A stretch of DNA of 64,000 bases from Streptomyces tanashiensis (GTDB lineage Bacteria > Actinomycetota > Actinomycetes > Streptomycetales > Streptomycetaceae): positions 1,148,401-1,212,400 of the forward strand of contig NZ_BMRZ01000001.1 in assembly GCF_014648895.1 (NCBI RefSeq), given 5' to 3'. A model generated the notes under the pieces. It did not search any database. It had not been told where the DNA came from and worked only from the letters and a program-made list of their open reading frames with translations. Positions within the stretch are counted from its first letter, which is position 1, and the number at the start of each line of letters is the position of its first letter. The translations under genes were made by a program, and so were the position numbers. This document shows, in pieces, positions 3,991-26,452 of this stretch.

Positions 3991-6900
3991 TCAGTCGAAC
4001 CAGCGGTCCCGGGCCAGCTCCGCCGTCCTCGACGGGTCCTCCAGGAGGGCCGCCACCTCGAAGCGGCGGGGCCACTGGCCGGCCGCCCAGGCGAGACCGG
4101 CCGCCACGCCCTCCAGGGTCGAGGCGTGGACGACGCCGTCGGGGGTGCGGCGCCAGTCGAGATCGGTGCCGCCCGCGTGGAGTTCCTCGTGCTCGACGTA
4201 CGAGGAGGGGGTCGAGGGGCCCAGGAGGGCGTGGACCGACGACGGGACCTCGTGCTCCTCGCCGACCGTCGTGACCTCGGCCGCGACGGCCTCGCTCAGC
4301 CGGCGGACCTGGAAGAGGTCGGCCAGGTCGGCCGCGCGGGACGGGGAGACCGGGAGGAGGGGGAGGTCGCCGGCCAGCGGGAGCAGGTCGGGGGCGTCTG
4401 CCACCAGGGCCTCGGAGGCGTCGACCACGACCAGGCTGCCGTCCACGACCGCGCGCAGTTCGTCCGGGAGCGTCACCTGCTCGGGGTCCAGGTCCGCCAG
4501 GGCCGTGTACAGGGCGTGGAGCTGGACCCCCGTCACCTCCCGCGACGGGTCCGCGAGACGGGTCAGGAGCTCCACCGCGCCGCCCGGCTCGTCGAGGAGG
4601 GCCGCGACCGAGGTGCGGACGCCCAGGGCGCGCAGGACCTGCTCGTCCTCGAATCCGGTCGCGTCGGCGGAGTCGTACAGGCCGGCGAGGAGCGGGTCCG
4701 AGCCCGCCGCGCGCAGGCCCGCCGGGCGGCGGCCGTCCAGGACCGGGTGGTCGCGCAGCCACCAGGCCGTGTACGAGCGGACGGTCTCCGTCGTGCCGTC
4801 CGGCAGCAGGACCCGTACGGGCTGGGTCAGGGCGTCCCGGAGGGGCGGCTGCGCGAGCAGCGCGAGGGCCTGCGGCCAGGCGTCGTCGTCCACCAGGTCC
4901 AGGTCCCGTACGGCCACGATCTCCGTCGCCACGGGGGGTACCGGGGTCTCCGGGAGGCGGTCCAGGACGTCCTCGCACCAGACGTCGACCGCGTCGAGGA
5001 GGCCCGCGTCGTCCGGCTCCGGGTAGTCGCCCTCGCGCGGCTCGACCTCGTCCGGGTCGAGGACCAGGTCGGTGGCGCGGACCAGGGCGAAGTTCGCGAG
5101 CACCCCGCACGCGGCGAGCGGCTGCTCGCCCCAGCGGGACGCCAGTTCCGCGTCGACGAAGGCCAGTTCGTCCTCGCGCATCACGGCCGCGAAGGGCGAG
5201 CCCGGGAGGACCAGTTCGCCCGCCGGGGAGAGTTCGCCGTCCTCGTCGGGGAGGGCGAGCGCGCCGAGCCACGGCTCCTCGCCGGGGTCGAGCTCCGCGT
5301 CGCGGACCAGGGCGAGGACCGTGTCGGCCAGCTCCTCCGCGTCGAGGGCGTCCGCGTCCTCGTCCCAGATCTCCCCCGCGTCGAGGGAGCCGGCGACCGC
5401 CGCCCGCACCTGCGGGGTCGTCAGGACCGCGCGGGGCGTGGCGGGCAGGGCGCCCAGCTTCTCCAGGAGCGGGTGGGCGGCCTCCGGGTGCGCCACCTTC
5501 AGGCCGAGCCGGGTCAGCTCGGCGGGGGTGCGGTCCTGCGGGAGGAGGACCTGACGGGGGCCGATCGTCGTACGGATCCGGGCGCCCTCGGCGGTCTCCG
5601 CGAGCGGCACCGGGAGGCCCGTCAGGCGGTCCGGGTCGACGCCGGCGAGGGAGTCGTACAGCCGCCACCACCACGTCGGCGCCCGGTCCACCCCGGCCAG
5701 GCGGTCGATCGCCTCGGTCAGGGGGACGCGGCCGACGCCGAGCGTGCGGAGCTCGGGACGGCGTTCGAGTCCGGCGGGCAGCAGGGTCGGGAACACCTCG
5801 GCGAGCACGTCGACGGTCTCCGCGCCCGCGCCCTCCGCGACCTCCGCCTCGATCGGGCGGAGCGCGGGAAGCTCCTCGGACGGCGCGGCCGGCGCCAGGA
5901 ACGCGACCCTCGGAAGCCGGTCCAGGATCGCCTCGCGCAGCGCCCCGTCGAGCGGGCCCTTGCCGAGCGGCCCGGGGACGAGGTCGAGGGTCGCCGTCGT
6001 CACCGGATGCCAGTCGGCGAGCAGTTCGGCGTACGCGTCGGCGGCCCGCTGCACCAGGAAGTCGGTGAGCGGCCCCGGCGCCGGGTGCCGCCGGGCCGTG
6101 TCGAGCGGGAGGGACGCGATGAGCAGGGCGGGGATGCCGAGCGGCTCGTCGGTGGGGGTCGGGGCGTGCACGACGGGGGTCGTACGGGGGTACCTCGGGG
6201 CCCCCTCGGCATCCACGGGCACGGCCCAGGTCACGGACCAGTGCGGGCGGAGCCGCTCCTCGACCGGACGGTCCTTCAGGAGTCCGGCGTCGAGGGGGCC
6301 GCCGTGGGTGACGGTCCGCCAGCGGTTGCCGCCGGTCGCGGAGTCGTCGACGCGGACATAGCCGTCGTCCTCGGAGCGGCGCAGGGTCCGTACGCCCTCG
6401 GCCGTCTCCACGACGATCTCGGCGAGGCCCGGAAGGGTGAGGAGCAGGGCGTCGTCGACCGAGGCGAGGAGACGCTCGGCCAGGTCCTCGGCGGCGGTGT
6501 CCCGCAGCGGGAGGACGACGACGGTGTCGTAGCCGTCGGGCGCGGTGCCCTCGGCGGGCAGCGGGAGCCGGAGCAGCGGCACGTGGCCGTCGCGGCGGCG
6601 CAGTTCGTCGCCGAGGCCCGGGCTGTACCGGGCGGCCTCGGCGGCCAGTTCGCGCGCCTCGGCGAGGGACCACCTGACGCCGCCGTGCCGGCCCAGGACG
6701 GCGGGCTCGTCGGAGACGGCGAGGACGGCGGCGAAGCCGACGCCGAAGCGGCCGACGGCGCCGTGGGCCTGCTCGCGCTTGGCCGAGGCGCGGAGGGTGG
6801 AGAGCGACTCGGTGCCCGCGGCGTCCAGCGGGGCGCCGGTGTTCGCGGCGGCGAGGACGGCGGGGCCCTCGTGGTCCGCGGGGTGCAGGGTCAGCCGGAG

Positions 6901-20545: not shown

Positions 20546-20632
20546 CGCTGCGGGCCCGGTCCGGTCCGGCCCCGCATCAGGCAGACTGGAGGATTGGCCG
20601 TCGTCGGAGCGGCCCGGGAAGGACCGATCGCA

Positions 20633-20682
20633 CGTGAATGGGCCACTCATCGTCCATGCGATCAAGCTGGATGCACATACCT
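20633..20682 (+). other. Left attachment site (attL)
   Basis: The xpb half up to the shared core is followed by the element arm 20659-20682. That arm is an imperfect inverted repeat (20 of 24 positions) of the arm at 24807-24830 at the other end. The predicted crossover dinucleotide is CA at 20655-20656. Confidence 0.8.
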
Positions 20683-20684
20683 AG
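20634..20684 (+). pseudogene. Severed 5' end of xpb (native start)
   Basis: The GTG at 20634, with GGAAGGA upstream, begins MNGPLIV, the normal N-terminus of streptomycete XPB helicases, which continues QSDKTLLLEVD. Here it runs into element DNA after GTC CA and ends at a TAG after 16 codons. The rest of the gene resumes at 24827, on the other side of the inserted element. The native xpb promoter and ribosome site are therefore stranded 4.2 kb away. Confidence 0.88.
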
Positions 20685-20717
20685 CACGTTGGGCCAGGTA
20701 GCGGATAGGCCCACCTG

Positions 20718-20740
20718 GAAAAGAGCGCGCTAAGCGCGCT
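20718..20740 (-). terminator. Rho-independent terminator
   Basis: On the minus strand AGCGCGCT, a T, then AGCGCGCT is followed by CTTTTCC. It lies at the stop codon of the 65-residue gene and would end the two-gene minus-strand transcript just before attL. Confidence 0.65.
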
Positions 20741-20927
20741 TCACGCTCTCGGGCGGGACCAGCCACTCACGGCCCCCGCCCTCAGGCCAGAGGAACGCTG
20801 TAGGGCGCTTCCGGCGCTCGCTCGGCAGGCCGGCGGGGTCCTCGTAGTCCGGAATCACGTCACGCAGGATGCCGACCCGTCCCGCGCCGTCTTCCACACG
20901 TCGCCCGATGTCCGCTGCGGTGACCAT
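20730..20927 (-). CDS. Hypothetical 65-residue element protein
   Basis: A 65-residue hydrophilic protein (MVTAADIGRRVEDGAGRVGI ... REWLVPPESVKRA) with an SH3-like, beta-rich appearance. Its ATG at 20927 has a strong GGAGGGG site and overlaps the preceding stop as TGATG, so it is translationally coupled to the 64-residue gene. Similar small pairs accompany integrated elements and regulators in streptomycetes, from memory. Function unknown. Confidence 0.72.
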   Translation of the reverse strand: MVTAADIGRRVEDGAGRVGILRDVIPDYEDPAGLPSERRKRPTAFLWPEGGGREWLVPPESVKRA

Positions 20928-21121
20928 CAGTGCCCCTCCGGGTGCCGCCGCATGAAGACGTTGCAGTCGGACACCGTGGCCATGTCGCCCCCGGCACGGG
21001 CGCGGGAGCGCACGTTGGCCAGCTCGATGCATCCCGCGCACCCGTCGACAGGGTCCGGCTCCCGATCCAGGTTCAACGGCAGTTCGACAGGCGTAGCGCT
21101 GTATCGCGTGGGCTCACTCAT
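20927..21121 (-). CDS. Hypothetical 64-residue element protein with Cys pair
   Basis: A 64-residue protein with a CAGC motif and a third Cys in VSDCNVFMRRH, which suggests metal binding. The start at 21121 has no clear ribosome site, so it may be translated from a very short or leaderless mRNA. It is divergent from the XRE-like regulator across a 116-bp region with repeated ACGTCC motifs and coupled to the 65-residue gene downstream. Function unknown. Confidence 0.68.
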   Translation of the reverse strand: MSEPTRYSATPVELPLNLDREPDPVDGCAGCIELANVRSRARAGGDMATVSDCNVFMRRHPEGH

Positions 21122-21237
21122 GGCGCGATGGTCGCGCCGGTCGTCAGGACGGAGGAACCTCGTACGTTTCCCACTTTGGGACGTCCTACCACGTGTAGAA
21201 CGTCCCTAGGAACGTCCGAAATCCGAGGGGGCGCAGC
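21122..21237. promoter_or_regulatory. Divergent promoter region with ACGTCC repeats
   Basis: ACGTCC occurs at 21181, 21200 and 21212. The last two lie in direct 8-bp repeats GAACGTCC spaced 12 bp apart, with GGGACGTCC upstream. This is a candidate operator for the adjacent helix-turn-helix regulator, controlling both directions. GAGGGG precedes the ATG at 21238. Confidence 0.5.
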
Positions 21238-21978
21238 ATGTCCAACGAGCGACTTCGAACCGTCATGGAGGCAGGTGGCTGGACACATGCGGCCTTGGCT
21301 GGCGTCACAGGCGTCGGCCCCAAGTCCGTGGAACGGTGGGTCAATCTCGGGCGTACTCCGCGCCGGGCAACGGCACTGGCGGCAGCGGAAGCGCTCGGGG
21401 AAGACGTGCATGCCCTGTGGCCGGCACTCCGGCAGGCGCGTGCCGCACGTGCTGTCAGCCCCGAACTCGTCGCTCTGTACGGACAGCGGGCGGATCTTCC
21501 CGTGTCGGTCTTCGTCGATCTCCTCTCCCAGGCGCGGCAGCGGATCGACGTGCTGGTGTACGCGGCCGTCTTCCTGCACGAGGCGTACCCCCGCCTCAAT
21601 GACCTCCTGCGCGAACGGGCCGACGACGGATGCGCGGTCCGCATCGCGGTGGGTGACGCCGACGACCGCAACGTCCAGCAGCGCGGACGAGAAGAGAAGT
21701 TCGGCCACGGCATCGAGTCCCGCTGCCGACTCGCGCTCCTGCATTACCGGCCTCTCGCGGACGTACCGGGAATCGAGCTGCGCACCCATGGAACGACCCT
21801 CTACAACAGCCTGTACCGCGCCGACGACCAGATGCTGGTCAACGCACACGTGTGGGGCGTCAACGCCTACGGCGCGCCCGTGTGGCACCTCCGGCGCCAC
21901 GGCGACGGGGGCATGTTCGACACCTACGCGGGGAGCTTCGACGCCGTATGGGAAACGGCCCGCCCCGTGGAAGGCTGA
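21238..21978 (+). CDS. Helix-turn-helix regulator with PLD-like C-terminal domain (DUF5919 type)
   Basis: A 246-residue protein. Residues 1 to about 60 form an XRE-like helix-turn-helix (TGVGPKSVERWVNLGRTPRR). Residues from about 85 onward (LPVSVFVDLLSQARQRIDVL, then FLHEAYPRLNDLLRERADDG, then FDTYAGSFDAVW) resemble the degenerate phospholipase-D-like domain DUF5919. I see no HKD catalytic motif, so the domain is probably a sensor. It is followed five bases later by a Nudix gene, an arrangement I recall as recurrent in actinomycetes. Likely regulator of the Nudix gene and perhaps of the divergent pair. Confidence 0.78.
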   Translation: MSNERLRTVMEAGGWTHAALAGVTGVGPKSVERWVNLGRTPRRATALAAAEALGEDVHALWPALRQARAARAVSPELVALYGQRADLPVSVFVDLLSQARQRIDVLVYAAVFLHEAYPRLNDLLRERADDGCAVRIAVGDADDRNVQQRGREEKFGHGIESRCRLALLHYRPLADVPGIELRTHGTTLYNSLYRADDQMLVNAHVWGVNAYGAPVWHLRRHGDGGMFDTYAGSFDAVWETARPVEG

Positions 21979-21983
21979 GCACC

Positions 21984-22454
21984 GTGGCCCGAACCGAGTA
22001 CTACGACGATCCCAACGCCCCCCGGCCGAACAGCCTGGTCGTGGCAGCCTCTGCCGTCGTCACCGATGAGGACGGCCGCGTACTCCTCCAGCGGCGCCGG
22101 GACAACGACTTGTGGGCGCTGCCGGGCGGAGCCATGGACATGGACGATTCCCTCCCCGGCACGGCCGTGCGAGAGGTCCAGGAGGAGACCGGTCTGGATG
22201 TCGAGATCACGGGACTCGTCGGCACGTACACCGACCCCCGCCATGTCATCGCGTACAGCGACGGAGAGGTACGCCGGCAGTTCAACGTCTGCTTCACCGC
22301 CCGGGTCGTCGGCGGCACCCTGGCCATCTCCGACGAGAGCACGGACCTCCGCTTCGTGGCGCCCGAAGCACTCGACTCGCTTCCCATGCACCACACGCAA
22401 CGCCTGCGCATCCGGCACTTCCTGGAGCACCGCGCCGCCCCGTACCTGGGATAG
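21984..22454 (+). CDS. Nudix hydrolase
   Basis: A 156-residue Nudix protein, presumably a nucleoside-diphosphate-linked pyrophosphatase in the cytoplasm. The Nudix box runs from GGAMDMDDSLPG to AVREVQEETGL. The metal-binding REVQEE core is intact, but the first conserved Glu of the box is Asp. The GTG at 21984 (MARTEYYDD) lies five bases after the regulator's stop, so the two are co-transcribed. It is cargo of the xpb-inserted element. Confidence 0.88.
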   Translation: MARTEYYDDPNAPRPNSLVVAASAVVTDEDGRVLLQRRRDNDLWALPGGAMDMDDSLPGTAVREVQEETGLDVEITGLVGTYTDPRHVIAYSDGEVRRQFNVCFTARVVGGTLAISDESTDLRFVAPEALDSLPMHHTQRLRIRHFLEHRAAPYLG

Positions 22455-22514
22455 GGCCACCGGTCGCGGTGGCGTCACTCCCCCAGCCGGCTACATGCAC
22501 CGGCCAGCAGTTCA

Positions 22515-22718
22515 TCAGGAGTAGAAGCCCTGGCCGTAGTCCTCCCGCCTCAGAGTGAAGTCGTCCGGACGATCACGACGAAGCTCCTCGTATCGCTGCG
22601 CGAAGATGTCGATCGCTTCATGAAGCGTGCAGTCCAATGCTTCGCGGATCGCCATGAGCGCAGAGATGATCCTTTGCTCCAGGATGTCGCGGTCCAGACT
22701 CTCGGGCAGATGCTCCAC
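22515..22718 (-). CDS. Hypothetical 67-residue protein
   Basis: A 67-residue, charged, helical protein (MEHLPESLDRDILEQR ... RREDYGQGFYS). It has no transmembrane span or cofactor motif. It is convergent with the Nudix gene and lies inside the inserted element. Codon use is reasonable for the genome. Function unknown. Confidence 0.6.
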   Translation of the reverse strand: MEHLPESLDRDILEQRIISALMAIREALDCTLHEAIDIFAQRYEELRRDRPDDFTLRREDYGQGFYS

Positions 22719-23146
22719 GGTGCCGTGACCCTACCCGGCACGGATGGCCAACCCCCGGGGCAGGGGATAACTGACCACGGAAACCCACTGATCAGCCACG
22801 CGAGAGTTTCCGCTCCCACACGCGCTGGTCAAGGGTTGAAGGGGGCCACCGCCCACCCCCTCGCACGCAAACGGATGCGGCTCTGGCTTCCGACCGCCCA
22901 CTCCCACAAGCGCAGCGTGCGTGGCTCACCCTCAGCGGCGCAGGGCTGCGATGGCGCAATGACGGATCGAGCCCTTGGTCTGTTTTCTCTTATTTTTCTA
23001 TGTGCAATCAAAAAGTAGGGAGAACCGTCATTCCGTCATCACCCTGCCGCTGAGAGAGCAGCAAACCGGCGGCACCCCCTGGGAGCGCGGACGACCCGCC
23101 GCCAGGGCTTCCCCAGCAACGGGCCGCGAACAGTCGCCAGGAGAGC
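22719..23146. other. 428-bp non-coding stretch inside the element
   Basis: No gene is visible. It contains an unusually A/T-rich patch (about 22978-23018, TCTTATTTTTCTATG) unlike its surroundings. The patch is flanked by AATGACGG (22958-22965) and its complement CCGTCATT (23025-23032). This could be a control region of the element, a terminator for the integrase, or a decayed gene. Confidence 0.5.
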
Positions 23147-24787
23147 TCAGAACAGCTCAAGCGTCTGAGCCGCTGCGCGCTGTACGACCGCTTCGACGTT
23201 CTTGCAGTCGGCGTCCGCCCGGCGGATCTCGCCGTCCTCGCCGAAGTAGACCGCGAGGCGGGAAGTGTCCAGTCTCGGGCCGCCCTTGCGGGACATGCCG
23301 ACCTCGACGTACGCCCCCGCGTTCAGCAGCAGATCGCGCTTGCCCGCCGTGTCCGCGTCCTTCCAGAGCTGTGCGTGAGTCCGGCCGGTCGGAACCGCCT
23401 CCACGCCCGCAGGCTTCGCGGTGCGCTGCTTCTCGTTCAGCGAAGCCAAGCGTTCCTCCAGCTTGGCGTACTGAGCCGCGTACCTCGTGGCACCCTCCTC
23501 ACCCTTGAACAGGCCACGGTCGTACCGGTCCTTCTCCAGGTCCTCCAGCGCTTCCCTGGCCTGCCGGATCTGCGGGCGGAAGTCCTCGCCCACGTGCTCC
23601 ACCATGCGCACCACGGGGAAGGCGCCGAACTTCTCCAGGAACAGCGCCGTGACGTGCTGTTCCATGCCCTCACCGGCGATGCTCACGCCGTAGCAAGTCA
23701 GCTCCGCGCCTGCCTGCCGGGCCTTCAGCCGGCCGATGCACCGATAGCGGATGCGCCCCTTGGCGACGTACGTGTACATGCGGTTGTGGCACACCGCGCA
23801 GTAGACGATCCCCCGCAGCAGCGCCGTTCCCTCGCGTCGCCGGTCGCCCGGATTGGCTCGCCGGCTCAGCTCGTCCTGCAACGCCTGCCAGGTGTCCATG
23901 TCCAGGATCGGCGTGCGGTTGACCAGCGGCAGGCCGTCCGTCATCAGGATCGGCTTGCCGTCCTCGATCACCTGCCCCAGCAACTGGGGGTTGCCGAGAA
24001 GGCTCCGCAAGGTGGACGGATACCACCGCTTGGAGTCGCTTCGCTTGCCTGTGGTCTGCCGCGACGAGTGGCCGGGCGACGGCTTGTCGGACTCCGTGAG
24101 GTCCACTGCGATCTTGAGCAGCGAGTCCTTGTTGAGGACGCGTTCCACGATCTCGTGAATCGTCTTCGCTTCCTCGGGGTTGACCTCCAGGACCTTCCCC
24201 GCACCGTTGGGGTTCGGGGCCACCCGGTACCCGTACGGCACCCTGCCGCCCGTATAACGGCCCTCCCGTCGCAGGTGCTCATGGGCGCTGGAGACACGCA
24301 TACCGATGGTGTCGGACTCCAGCTCGGCGAAGACCGCGATCACCTTGGCCATGGCACGCCCCATGGAAGAGGTGAGGTCCAGCGGCTCACTGGCGGATGC
24401 CAGAGCCACGCCCTCCGCCTGCGTCACCTTCATGATCTCGGCGAAGTCCACCGTGGAGCGGGCCAAGCGGTCGATCTTGAAGAACACGATCACGTCGAAC
24501 TCGGCGAGACGGGCCAGGATCCGCTGAAGCCCGGGACGGTCCAGTCCGCGCGAGTAGCCCGAGACGTCGATGTCCTCTTCCACGGCTATGACCTGCCAGC
24601 CACGGGCCGCGCACAGAGCCTCACAGGCCGCGCGCTGACGCTCGGGCGAGGTAGAGTTTTCTGTTTCCCGCGAAAGGCGGACATAGATGGCCGCGCGCAT
24701 TCCCGACGCGTTGGCCGGGACGCCCTTCGGGCGACGGGCACGGGGCATGGCCCTTGCCGTGGCAGGCGCAGATGTGGTGTCTGTCAC
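23147..24787 (-). CDS. Large serine recombinase (integrase)
   Basis: A 546-residue site-specific recombinase. The resolvase-type catalytic domain begins RAAIYVRLSRETENS with the nucleophilic Ser at about residue 39. The Recombinase domain includes GGRVPYGYRVAPNPNGAG, and a zinc ribbon with YCAVCHNRMY and later cysteines lies near residue 330. A coiled-coil segment (LEDLEKDRYDRGLFKGEEGA) follows, as in directional phage integrases. The GTG at 24787 is 27 bases from the rebuilt xpb start and divergent from it. It should catalyse attP x attB integration into xpb; excision would need a directionality factor, possibly one of the small element genes. Confidence 0.93.
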   Translation of the reverse strand: MTDTTSAPATARAMPRARRPKGVPANASGMRAAIYVRLSRETENSTSPERQRAACEALCAARGWQVIAVEEDIDVSGYSRGLDRPGLQRILARLAEFDVIVFFKIDRLARSTVDFAEIMKVTQAEGVALASASEPLDLTSSMGRAMAKVIAVFAELESDTIGMRVSSAHEHLRREGRYTGGRVPYGYRVAPNPNGAGKVLEVNPEEAKTIHEIVERVLNKDSLLKIAVDLTESDKPSPGHSSRQTTGKRSDSKRWYPSTLRSLLGNPQLLGQVIEDGKPILMTDGLPLVNRTPILDMDTWQALQDELSRRANPGDRRREGTALLRGIVYCAVCHNRMYTYVAKGRIRYRCIGRLKARQAGAELTCYGVSIAGEGMEQHVTALFLEKFGAFPVVRMVEHVGEDFRPQIRQAREALEDLEKDRYDRGLFKGEEGATRYAAQYAKLEERLASLNEKQRTAKPAGVEAVPTGRTHAQLWKDADTAGKRDLLLNAGAYVEVGMSRKGGPRLDTSRLAVYFGEDGEIRRADADCKNVEAVVQRAAAQTLELF

Positions 24788-24806
24788 AACGCGATCCTAT
24801 CCCTGG

Positions 24807-24856
24807 AGGTATGTGTGTCCTGCCTGATCGTCCAGAGCGACAAGACGCTGCTCCTG
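24807..24856 (+). other. Right attachment site (attR), doubling as xpb translation start
   Basis: The element arm 24807-24830 is followed by the core and xpb DNA. The predicted crossover dinucleotide is CA at 24833-24834. The arm contains the AGG of the GGAGG ribosome site (24805-24809) and the GTG codon at 24815 now used by xpb. Confidence 0.8.
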
Positions 24857-26452
24857 GAGGTCGACCACGAGCTCGCCGAGGCCTGCCGTCGGGCCATCGC
24901 GCCGTTCGCCGAGCTGGAGCGGGCGCCGGAGCACATCCACACCTACCGGGTGACGCCGCTGGGTCTGTGGAACGCGCGGGCCGCCGGGCACGACGCCGAG
25001 CAGGTCGTCGACGCGCTCGTCGAGTACTCGCGGTACCCCGTGCCGCACGCGCTGCTCGTCGACATCGCCGAGACCATGGCCCGGTACGGGCGGCTCACGC
25101 TCTCCAAGCACCCCACGCACGGGCTCGTGCTGACCACGACCGACCGGCCCGTCCTGGAGGAGATCCTCCGGTCGAAGAAGGTGCAGCCGCTGGTCGGCGA
25201 GCGGATCGACGCGGACACCGTGGTCGTGCACCCCTCCGAGCGCGGGCAGATCAAGCAGACGCTGCTGAAGCTGGGCTGGCCGGCCGAGGACCTCGCCGGG
25301 TACGTGGACGGGGAGGCGCACCGGATCGACCTGGCCGAGGACGGCTGGAGCCTGCGCCCGTACCAGAAGCAGGCCGTCGACGGCTTCTGGCACGGCGGCT
25401 CCGGTGTCGTCGTGCTGCCCTGCGGCGCGGGCAAGACGCTGGTCGGGGCCGGGGCGATGGCCCAGGCGAAGGCGACCACGCTGATCCTCGTGACGAACAC
25501 CGTGTCCGCCCGGCAGTGGAAGCACGAGCTGGTGAAGCGGACCTCGCTGACCGAGGACGAGATCGGCGAGTACAGCGGCACCCGCAAGGAGATCCGGCCG
25601 GTCACGATCGCCACGTACCAGGTGCTCACGACCAAGCGGAAGGGCATCTACCCGCACCTGGAGCTCTTCGACTCCCGGGACTGGGGCCTCATCGTCTACG
25701 ACGAGGTGCACCTGCTGCCGGCGCCGGTCTTCAAGTTCACGGCCGACCTCCAGGCCCGCCGCCGGCTCGGGCTGACCGCGACCCTCGTGCGGGAGGACGG
25801 GCGGGAGTCCGACGTGTTCTCGCTGATCGGGCCGAAGCGGTTCGACGCGCCGTGGAAGGAGATCGAGGCGCAGGGGTACATCGCGCCCGCCGACTGCGTC
25901 GAGGTGCGGGTGAACCTGACCGACTCGGAGCGGCTCGCGTACGCGACGGCCGAGGCGGAGGAGAAGTACCGCTTCTGCGCGACGACCGCGACGAAGCGGA
26001 AGGTGACGGAAGCCCTGGTGAAGAGGTTCGAGGGTCAGCAGATCCTCGTCATCGGGCAGTACATCGACCAGCTGGACGAGCTGGGCGAGCACCTCGACGC
26101 CCCGGTGATCAAGGGCGAGACGTCGAACGCGCAGCGGGAGAAGCTCTTCGACGCGTTCCGCAACGGCGAGATCAACGTGCTCGTGGTGTCGAAGGTCGCG
26201 AACTTCTCGATCGACCTGCCGGAGGCGACCGTCGCGATCCAGGTGTCGGGCACCTTCGGGTCCCGGCAGGAGGAGGCACAGCGCCTGGGCCGGGTGCTGC
26301 GGCCGAAGGCGGACGGGCACAAGGCGCACTTCTACTCGGTGGTCGCGCGGGACACGATCGACCAGGACTTCGCGGCGCACCGGCAGCGGTTCCTGGCGGA
26401 GCAGGGGTACGCGTACCGGATCGTGGACGCGGACGAGCTGCTGGCGCCCTAG
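24815..26452 (+). CDS. XPB/Ssl2-type DNA repair helicase (start rebuilt by element)
   Basis: A 545-residue superfamily 2 helicase related to XPB, presumed to act in nucleotide excision repair. Walker A is PCGAGKT (about residue 200), the Walker B/DEAH-type motif is YDEVHLL (about residue 296), the XPB-specific RED motif is in LVREDGRESD, and motif VI is in QRLGRVLRPK. The GTG at 24815, five bases after GGAGG, gives MSCLIVQSDK. The first three codons and the ribosome site are element DNA and native xpb resumes at codon 5. The helicase-associated/WYL gene across the element is its natural upstream neighbour. Confidence 0.92.
   Translation: MSCLIVQSDKTLLLEVDHELAEACRRAIAPFAELERAPEHIHTYRVTPLGLWNARAAGHDAEQVVDALVEYSRYPVPHALLVDIAETMARYGRLTLSKHPTHGLVLTTTDRPVLEEILRSKKVQPLVGERIDADTVVVHPSERGQIKQTLLKLGWPAEDLAGYVDGEAHRIDLAEDGWSLRPYQKQAVDGFWHGGSGVVVLPCGAGKTLVGAGAMAQAKATTLILVTNTVSARQWKHELVKRTSLTEDEIGEYSGTRKEIRPVTIATYQVLTTKRKGIYPHLELFDSRDWGLIVYDEVHLLPAPVFKFTADLQARRRLGLTATLVREDGRESDVFSLIGPKRFDAPWKEIEAQGYIAPADCVEVRVNLTDSERLAYATAEAEEKYRFCATTATKRKVTEALVKRFEGQQILVIGQYIDQLDELGEHLDAPVIKGETSNAQREKLFDAFRNGEINVLVVSKVANFSIDLPEATVAIQVSGTFGSRQEEAQRLGRVLRPKADGHKAHFYSVVARDTIDQDFAAHRQRFLAEQGYAYRIVDADELLAP

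What the first reader, a model, noticed from the sequence alone, without database searches (positions are those of the whole stretch)
20634..24856. Integrative element replaces the translation start of the XPB helicase gene
The native xpb start (GTG at 20634, MNGPLIV) ends after 16 codons at the left junction. At the right junction the element supplies GGAGG and GTG so that xpb now begins MSC and rejoins native sequence at LIVQSDK. The gene stays open while its native promoter is cut off 4.2 kb away, so xpb expression must now depend on element DNA, including the region overlapping the integrase promoter. Integration inside an essential-looking reading frame with start-codon replacement by the attachment arm is unusual. 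I know of no described serine-integrase site in xpb.
Basis: partly seen in the sequence, partly recalled or inferred. Interest (0 to 1): 0.93.

Follow-up and report, generated by a model that had tools for sequence, protein, structure and literature searches.

The report
Dead mobile element starts repair gene
A small mobile DNA element that recurs at one spot has replaced the start of a predicted DNA-repair helicase gene with its own start codon and predicted ribosome-binding site; 46 of 392 sampled Streptomyces genomes carry this start, and it stays in place, likely still driving the gene, even where the rest of the element has apparently rotted away.

Summary
A 4,178-bp element with a large serine integrase sits at codons 6-8 of xpb (core ATCGTCCA). 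Two relatives have the empty site, identical to the window's joined flanks from the start codon on. The native GTG (MNGP) is stranded in a 16-codon ORF; xpb now starts GGAGG-N5-GTG-TCC-TGC (MSC) in the element's attP arm.

The same start is in at least 46 of 392 sampled genus genomes; a scan of GTDB species for arm plus core found 71 of 72 at xpb, in several genera. GP is the ancestral state. The 46 form a decay series: integrase full-length in 7, remnant in 17, none detected in 22. In 40 loci without a full integrase (39 of the genus), GGAGG and a start codon persist in 40, the spacer in 16. Of 41 integrase-free scars, 18 also keep a plus-strand TANNNT-N5-RTTTC block (shuffles 0.01), which in the window lies antisense inside the integrase gene: a candidate xpb promoter, untested. 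Gene-start replacement is known for elements at dusA and prfC. The serine integrase, the xpb target and the fossil start signals look new.

The parts
20582..20597 (+). native xpb promoter-like block CAGACT-N3-GGATTGG, now 4.2 kb from xpb
   Evidence: natives show CACACT-N4-GTTTGG-like blocks here; regex match in 48 of 80 natives, shuffled mean 0.28
20634..20684 (+). stranded native xpb start (MNGPLIV) running into the element; 16 codons and stop
   Evidence: sequence; empty-site comparison
20649..20656 (+). left copy of the 8-bp core ATCGTCCA (attL)
20669..20681 (+). left attP-arm repeat GGATGCACATACC
   Evidence: attP symmetric at 21 of 32 pairs
20927..21121 (-). 64-aa ORF, no family
21238..21978 (+). 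HTH (XRE-like) protein, 246 aa, cargo
   Evidence: Pfam HTH_31
21984..22454 (+). NUDIX hydrolase, 156 aa, cargo
   Evidence: Pfam NUDIX E 5.9e-21
22515..22718 (-). 67-aa ORF, no family; 97% identical in L076
23147..24787 (-). large serine integrase, 546 aa; catalytic Ser taken to be that of YVRLS (recalled motif)
   Evidence: Pfam Resolvase + Recombinase + Zn_ribbon_recom; phrog_95 integrase
24652..24667 (+). candidate xpb promoter TAGAGT-N5-GTTTC, antisense to integrase codons about 41-46
   Evidence: retained in integrase-free scars; no sigma-70 hit and no -35
24805..24817 (+). element-supplied Shine-Dalgarno GGAGG and in-frame GTG start, in the right attP arm
24808..24820 (+). right attP-arm repeat GGTATGTGTGTCC
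24827..24834 (+). right copy of the core ATCGTCCA (attR); host xpb resumes
24815..26452 (+). xpb helicase, now MSCLIVQSDK..., 545 aa
   Evidence: NF045503 869 bits against cut-off 610

Best explanation
A 4.2-kb element with a large serine integrase sits at codons 6-8 of xpb, so that the xpb frame now opens at the element's GTG behind its GGAGG, which is predicted to be the new ribosome-binding site, and transcription likely comes from a promoter that the element carries antisense in its integrase gene. Shown: target site, empty site, frame-restoring arm, recurrence at the same codons, decay series, retention of GGAGG and a start codon. Inferred: that the integrase made the insertion at this core (from its family, attP symmetry and co-location); that integrase-free MSC starts are decayed copies; that selection for xpb expression is what preserves the start signals; and that TAGAGT-N5-GTTTC at 24652-24667 is the xpb promoter in this clade of elements. 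Once the element is broken, the host likely cannot easily return to its own start, so the arm becomes a permanent part of xpb.
For: Empty site in two relatives equal to the joined flanks from the start codon on. The 10 loci stored with integrase identity of 70% or more (window included; the hit list was truncated) all sit at xpb, with the arm GGAGGTATGYGTGTCCTGC in 10 of 10. 71 of 72 arm-plus-core matches in GTDB species are at the xpb start. Class-wide GP. 47 of 47 MSC starts keep GGAGG and a start codon (42 GTG, 4 ATG, 1 TTG) and none has a stop in the first 480 codons. In the 40 without a full integrase: SD 40, start 40, spacer 16. Element 97.1% identical over 4,160 bp between window and L076 while xpb is 88.5%: recent horizontal spread. 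The label needs 34 changes on the xpb tree, at least 15 forced by strong branches. Promoter block in 19 of 42 integrase-free upstream regions as printed, 18 of 41 without the duplicate L143 = L078; shuffles 0.01, minus strand 0, natives 0 of 80.
Against: No expression data. The sigma-70 scan finds no promoter at 24300-24900; the candidate has no -35. A second clade of elements has TCGTCT-type sequence at the same place, so the block is not universal: strict match in only 19 of 60 integrase-bearing loci, and 16 of the 42 integrase-free loci as printed show neither regex. The regexes were written after seeing the alignment. The MSC class was defined by the two codons before LIV, so retention of TCC TGC itself is not evidence. 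The xpb tree may be distorted by recombination, some changes may be losses, and 31 of 500 label shuffles need as few changes. No excisionase or transfer gene was recognised.
Confidence: 0.82

Rival explanations
1. The start is replaced as described, but xpb transcripts come from read-through or another promoter; the TANNNT-N5-RTTTC block is a by-product of integrase coding.
For: No -35 and no sigma-70 hit; the block overlaps integrase codons of SRETE.ST, present in the full-length genes read; the second clade lacks it.
Against: It survives in loci with no integrase match in the 250 bp upstream, at 32-169 bp from the SD, on one strand only.
Confidence: 0.3
2. MSCLIVQSDK is an old native start, and elements simply landed beside it.
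For: In 22 of 46 MSC genomes of the genus no integrase was detected.
Against: Of the rows shown in the truncated list all but one (G680) read GG-CC; MSC starts are scattered over the xpb tree next to GP sisters; MSC arms carry the attP repeat, and four elements carry attL with the GP start at the other end.
Confidence: 0.03
3. xpb is dead or unneeded in carriers and the open frame is passive.
For: 5 of 37 probed genomes have no XPB match, so XPB may be dispensable.
Against: SD and start kept in 40 of 40 while the adjacent integrase was lost or broken; no stops in 480 codons in 47 of 47; ATG in place of GTG in one group of four (L213, L215-L217).
Confidence: 0.05
4. Few integrations happened; most MSC lineages got the allele by descent or by homologous recombination of the xpb region.
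For: Some MSC rows are sister groups (L221-L223, L213-L217, L195/L202); a gene tree cannot separate re-integration from recombination.
Against: Two promoter-type clades, different cargo and different left ends at the same site; near-identical element in distant xpb backgrounds.
Confidence: 0.3

Closest known systems
IMEVchUSA3 and other dusA-specific integrative elements (PMC8409611, passages seen)
   Same: Insert in the 5' end of a housekeeping gene; attR restores the frame with a new N-terminus; element supplies a new promoter (lacZ fusion there).
   Different: Different integrase family (tyrosine type, recalled for dusA elements; the passages call SGI1's own integrase tyrosine); new N-terminus compared over 35 residues; proteobacteria; no fossil series of retained start signals in the passages seen.
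SXT/R391 at prfC (PMC4344509 passages; [quoted passage not shown]
   Same: 5' gene insertion with new promoter and N-terminus.
   Different: About 100-kb conjugative element (abstract in the listing) with an integrase of another family (recalled); here 4.2 kb, no transfer genes found.
SCO2603-type serine-integrase elements at the phiJoe site (PMC5311408, passages)
   Same: Small chromosomal serine-integrase elements in Streptomyces with varying cargo at one conserved site.
   Different: Site is 74 bp from the END of a radical-SAM ORF; no start replacement in the passages seen.
PhiBT1 site in SCO4848 (PMC7460540, passages)
   Same: Streptomyces phage-integrase site inside a coding gene.
   Different: Insertion is said to inactivate the co-transcribed SCO4849; no frame rescue described in the passages seen.

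Membership tests
Large serine integrase | Resolvase domain, Recombinase domain, zinc ribbon in one long protein | tested here: met
   546 aa
Large serine integrase | short shared core with dyad-symmetric attP | tested here: met
   8-bp core; attP 21 of 32 symmetric pairs, best of the centres tried
Large serine integrase | catalysed attP x attB recombination | not testable with these tools
   no assay
Integrative mobilizable element | relaxase or oriT | tested here: not met
   no relaxase among the element ORFs scanned; oriT not searched
Prophage | virion genes | tested here: not met
   no virion family accepted (one NUDIX stretch matched a portal-protein model at 1e-06, taken as the NUDIX domain); no phage integrase of 60% identity or more
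dusA/prfC-type gene-start-replacing element | 5' insertion with frame restored by attR | tested here: met
dusA/prfC-type gene-start-replacing element | element promoter drives the target gene | tested here: inconclusive
   comparative support only; negative
XPB helicase | NF045503 above cut-off | tested here: met
   869 bits against 610

The most novel reading that the evidence does not exclude
The element carries a dedicated host-gene rescue cassette: a promoter written antisense through its own integrase active-site codons, plus an SD and start codon built into its attP arm. When the element dies, selection for the host's repair helicase keeps just this cassette, so a broad set of actinobacteria now express xpb from fossil attachment sites.
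Probability: 0.5. Interest if true: 0.78.

Novelty: new variant of a known kind. Interest (0 to 1): 0.64.

Why it matters
It would show how an integrase can use a conserved protein-coding target without harm, by carrying the missing start signals in its attachment arm, and how such arms become permanent host regulatory DNA. It gives a natural series from intact element to bare scar in which retention of transcription and translation signals can be measured. It also affects annotation: xpb starts differ by lineage, and the arm is a marker for lost elements.

Tried and rejected
Rejected: MSC as ancestral; a known phage or plasmid as source of the integrase (no match of 60% identity or more in either collection; the phage rows listed are 37% or less and the plasmid rows listed 31% or less); an Rfam element at the junctions (none at gathering score); a canonical sigma-70 promoter (none); defence cargo as an explanation (the NUDIX protein matches PDC-S07 at 2.2e-10 only). 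I first read L195 and L202 as scars with the host promoter back in place; closer reading shows TAGACT, the element type, so only L193 remains a possible host-promoter scar. One search's 330 matches include a decoy gene (GTGGGYGCGGACTTC...), so I give no native count from it, and 46 is a lower bound: a genome matched only through the decoy and not hit was not looked at again, except G018. Papers: the four searches aimed at a serine-integrase site, xpb or start replacement gave no report of an xpb site; most hits were seen as listings only. Passages were sought in PMC12924846, PMC5311408 and PMC7460540 ('helicase' 0 times in each) and PMC2587704 (XPB named as a repair helicase of Kineococcus and M. 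tuberculosis, no insertion in it in the passages). One search's XPB phrase occurs in none of the 10 papers listed. Rows dropped: L081, L088, L090 (arm hits not at xpb); L156 (arm not at xpb); L180 (too little upstream sequence for the promoter test); L143 is the same locus as L078. Five genomes gave no XPB match. One search's pattern was matched by 226 of 394 genomes and can show GP- or SC-like codons only.
Full report
What is there. The window lies in a genome of 9.0 Mb. Its genus is taken as Streptomyces because unnamed genus loci coincide with named Streptomyces records (for example L078 = L143, S. hainanensis). xpb is at 24815-26452 (NF045503, 869 bits, cut-off 610). A 4,178-bp block lies between two copies of ATCGTCCA at 20649 and 24827. 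Left of it is the native start GTG 20634 (MNGPLIV), which runs on into the block and stops after 16 codons. At its right end GGAGG (24805) and GTG (24815) open a frame MSC that meets the host codons LIVQSDK. Two relatives, L240 and L242 (xpb 96.8% and 97.3% identical over 600 bp), have no block: from the start codon on, their site equals the window's two flanks joined. L240 also aligns through the upstream gene's end; L242 matches only about 90 bp upstream. The base before the core is C at the left junction and in the empty site but G at the right junction, so the crossover lies in the core.

The element. It encodes a 546-aa large serine integrase (Resolvase, Recombinase, zinc ribbon), an HTH protein, a NUDIX hydrolase and small ORFs. 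No relaxase, virion gene or known excisionase was found among the ORFs scanned. The two element ends put side by side give an attP with 21 of 32 symmetric pairs in the window (21, 19 and 20 in L076, L034 and L140). In the right arm GGAGG overlaps the outer edge of the repeat; the mirror arm reads CTAGG there. No phage or plasmid record holds an integrase of 60% identity or more.

Recurrence. In 295 genus genomes, the 10 stored loci with integrase identity of 70% or more (window included; hit list truncated) lie directly upstream of xpb, with the arm GGAGGTATGYGTGTCCTGC in 10 of 10. The arm pattern with up to one mismatch hits 30 of 392 genus genomes, reversed control 0; 27 of the 30 are at xpb. 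Of 37 genomes with no match or only a decoy match and none, 32 had an XPB match. Thirty of those loci were read, 18 with MSC starts on altered arms; of the other two, G266 is MSC and G330 GP. That makes at least 46 of 392. A scan of GTDB species for arm plus core gave 72 loci, 71 at the xpb start, including Kitasatospora, Actinacidiphila, Streptantibioticus, Wenjunlia, Saccharopolyspora (3) and Streptosporangium (2). At class level 226 of 394 genomes matched a pattern that allows GP- or SC-like codons; of the rows that the truncated list shows, only G680 reads TCCTGC and the others read GG-CC, i.e. GP. GP is therefore taken as ancestral. On a tree of 127 xpb genes (47 MSC, 80 GP) the label needs 34 changes, at least 15 forced by well-supported branches; shuffled labels need 38.3 on average and 31 of 500 need as few. 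It is a gene tree by a quick method; changes may be gains or losses.

Mobility. Window and L076 share the element at 97.1% over 4,160 bp, while xpb is 88.5% and the upstream gene about 81%. Complete attL ends were recognised in four loci at xpb: the window (4,178 bp), L076, L034 and L140, with 6.1-6.3 kb in the last two; in the other loci read no attL was recognised. Cargo differs: L034 carries an HTH/TPR protein, a resolvase and an HNH protein.

Decay, and what survives. Among the 46 genus MSC genomes the integrase is full-length in 7, a remnant in 17 and undetected in 22 (counted if a match began within 400 bp of the end of the stretch; stretches were 2.5 or 1.5 kb, a few shorter, down to 297 bp). 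The MSC class was defined by the two residues before LIVQSDK, not by the SD. In 47 of 47 (one outside the genus) GGAGG and a start codon are present: 42 GTG, 4 ATG, 1 TTG, at 5-9 nt. In the 40 without a full integrase, SD 40, start 40, but the spacer TATGY is intact in only 16. None of 47 has a stop in the first 480 codons from LIV on.

Promoter. Aligned upstream regions show a plus-strand block in one clade of elements, window included: TAGASTxxxxxGTTTC, antisense to the codons after the presumed catalytic serine. In loci with no integrase match in the 250 bp upstream it is found in 19 of 42 as printed (18 of 41 without the duplicate L143), with shuffles giving 0.01, the minus strand 0 and natives 0 of 80. 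A looser TARACT-N5-RTT is in 20 of 42; either in 26 of 42; 16 show neither. The related rows among these (e.g. L213-L217; L087, L188, L191) are not independent, and the regexes were written after seeing the alignment. The distance to the SD varies from 32 to 169 bp, as if the stuffing between promoter and SD were free to go. Native genes have a similar-looking block, CASACT-N4-GTTTGG, by a looser regex in 48 of 80. Against it: no -35 and no hit in a sigma-70 scan; only 19 of 60 integrase-bearing loci have it; a second clade has a different block (RMCATRGANNGCGGC, 37 of 102 upstream regions, 0 in one shuffle of each). I rate the promoter step at about 0.65.

Reading. The integrase likely chose a conserved coding site and avoids harm by carrying the lost start signals in its own arm; the host then likely keeps the signals when the element dies. 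Gene-start replacement with a new promoter is known for IMEVchUSA3 at dusA and is stated there for SXT at prfC (PMC8409611, passages). New here, as far as my searches reach (open-licence library only), are the large serine integrase, the xpb site and the fossil series.

Noticed in passing
L156 4323-4367 and L170 833: Streptomyces shenzhenensis DSM 42034 has two arms on one contig; the one in L156 is followed by core and an element left end (CATACGATCA), i.e. an attP-like junction in the chromosome.
   Followed up: partly
upstream of xpb in L135, L144, L145, L182, L218: A second retained block, RMCATRGANNGCGGC, occurs in scars of the other element clade and in none of the 45 loci with the TANNNT-N5-RTTTC or TARACT-N5-RTT block; perhaps that clade's promoter.
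   Followed up: partly
window 24785-24799: The integrase GTG (24787, minus) is preceded 6 nt upstream by TAGGAT, as in a leaderless transcript; integrase and xpb start codons are only 27 bp apart, divergent.
   Followed up: no
L126, L149, L184, L175, L190, L227: The same xpb start occurs in Saccharopolyspora, Streptosporangium and one further family (G680), so the element family crosses actinobacterial families.
   Followed up: partly
L193, last 60 bp before the arm (arm at 4157 in xpb orientation): Kitasatospora humi scar has a host-like GACACTGGAGG block directly upstream of the element SD: possibly a deletion that joined the host promoter to the element start.
   Followed up: partly
window 23375-26452: The xpb frame is open far back through the antisense of the integrase (1025 aa); probably an effect of high G+C, since a stop closes it in L009.
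   Followed up: partly
window 21984-22454: Cargo NUDIX protein matches the PADLOC candidate model PDC-S07 at 2.2e-10.
   Followed up: no
G121, G139, G178, G183, G320: Five genomes of the genus gave no XPB match at E<=1e-100: loss or assembly gap.
   Followed up: no
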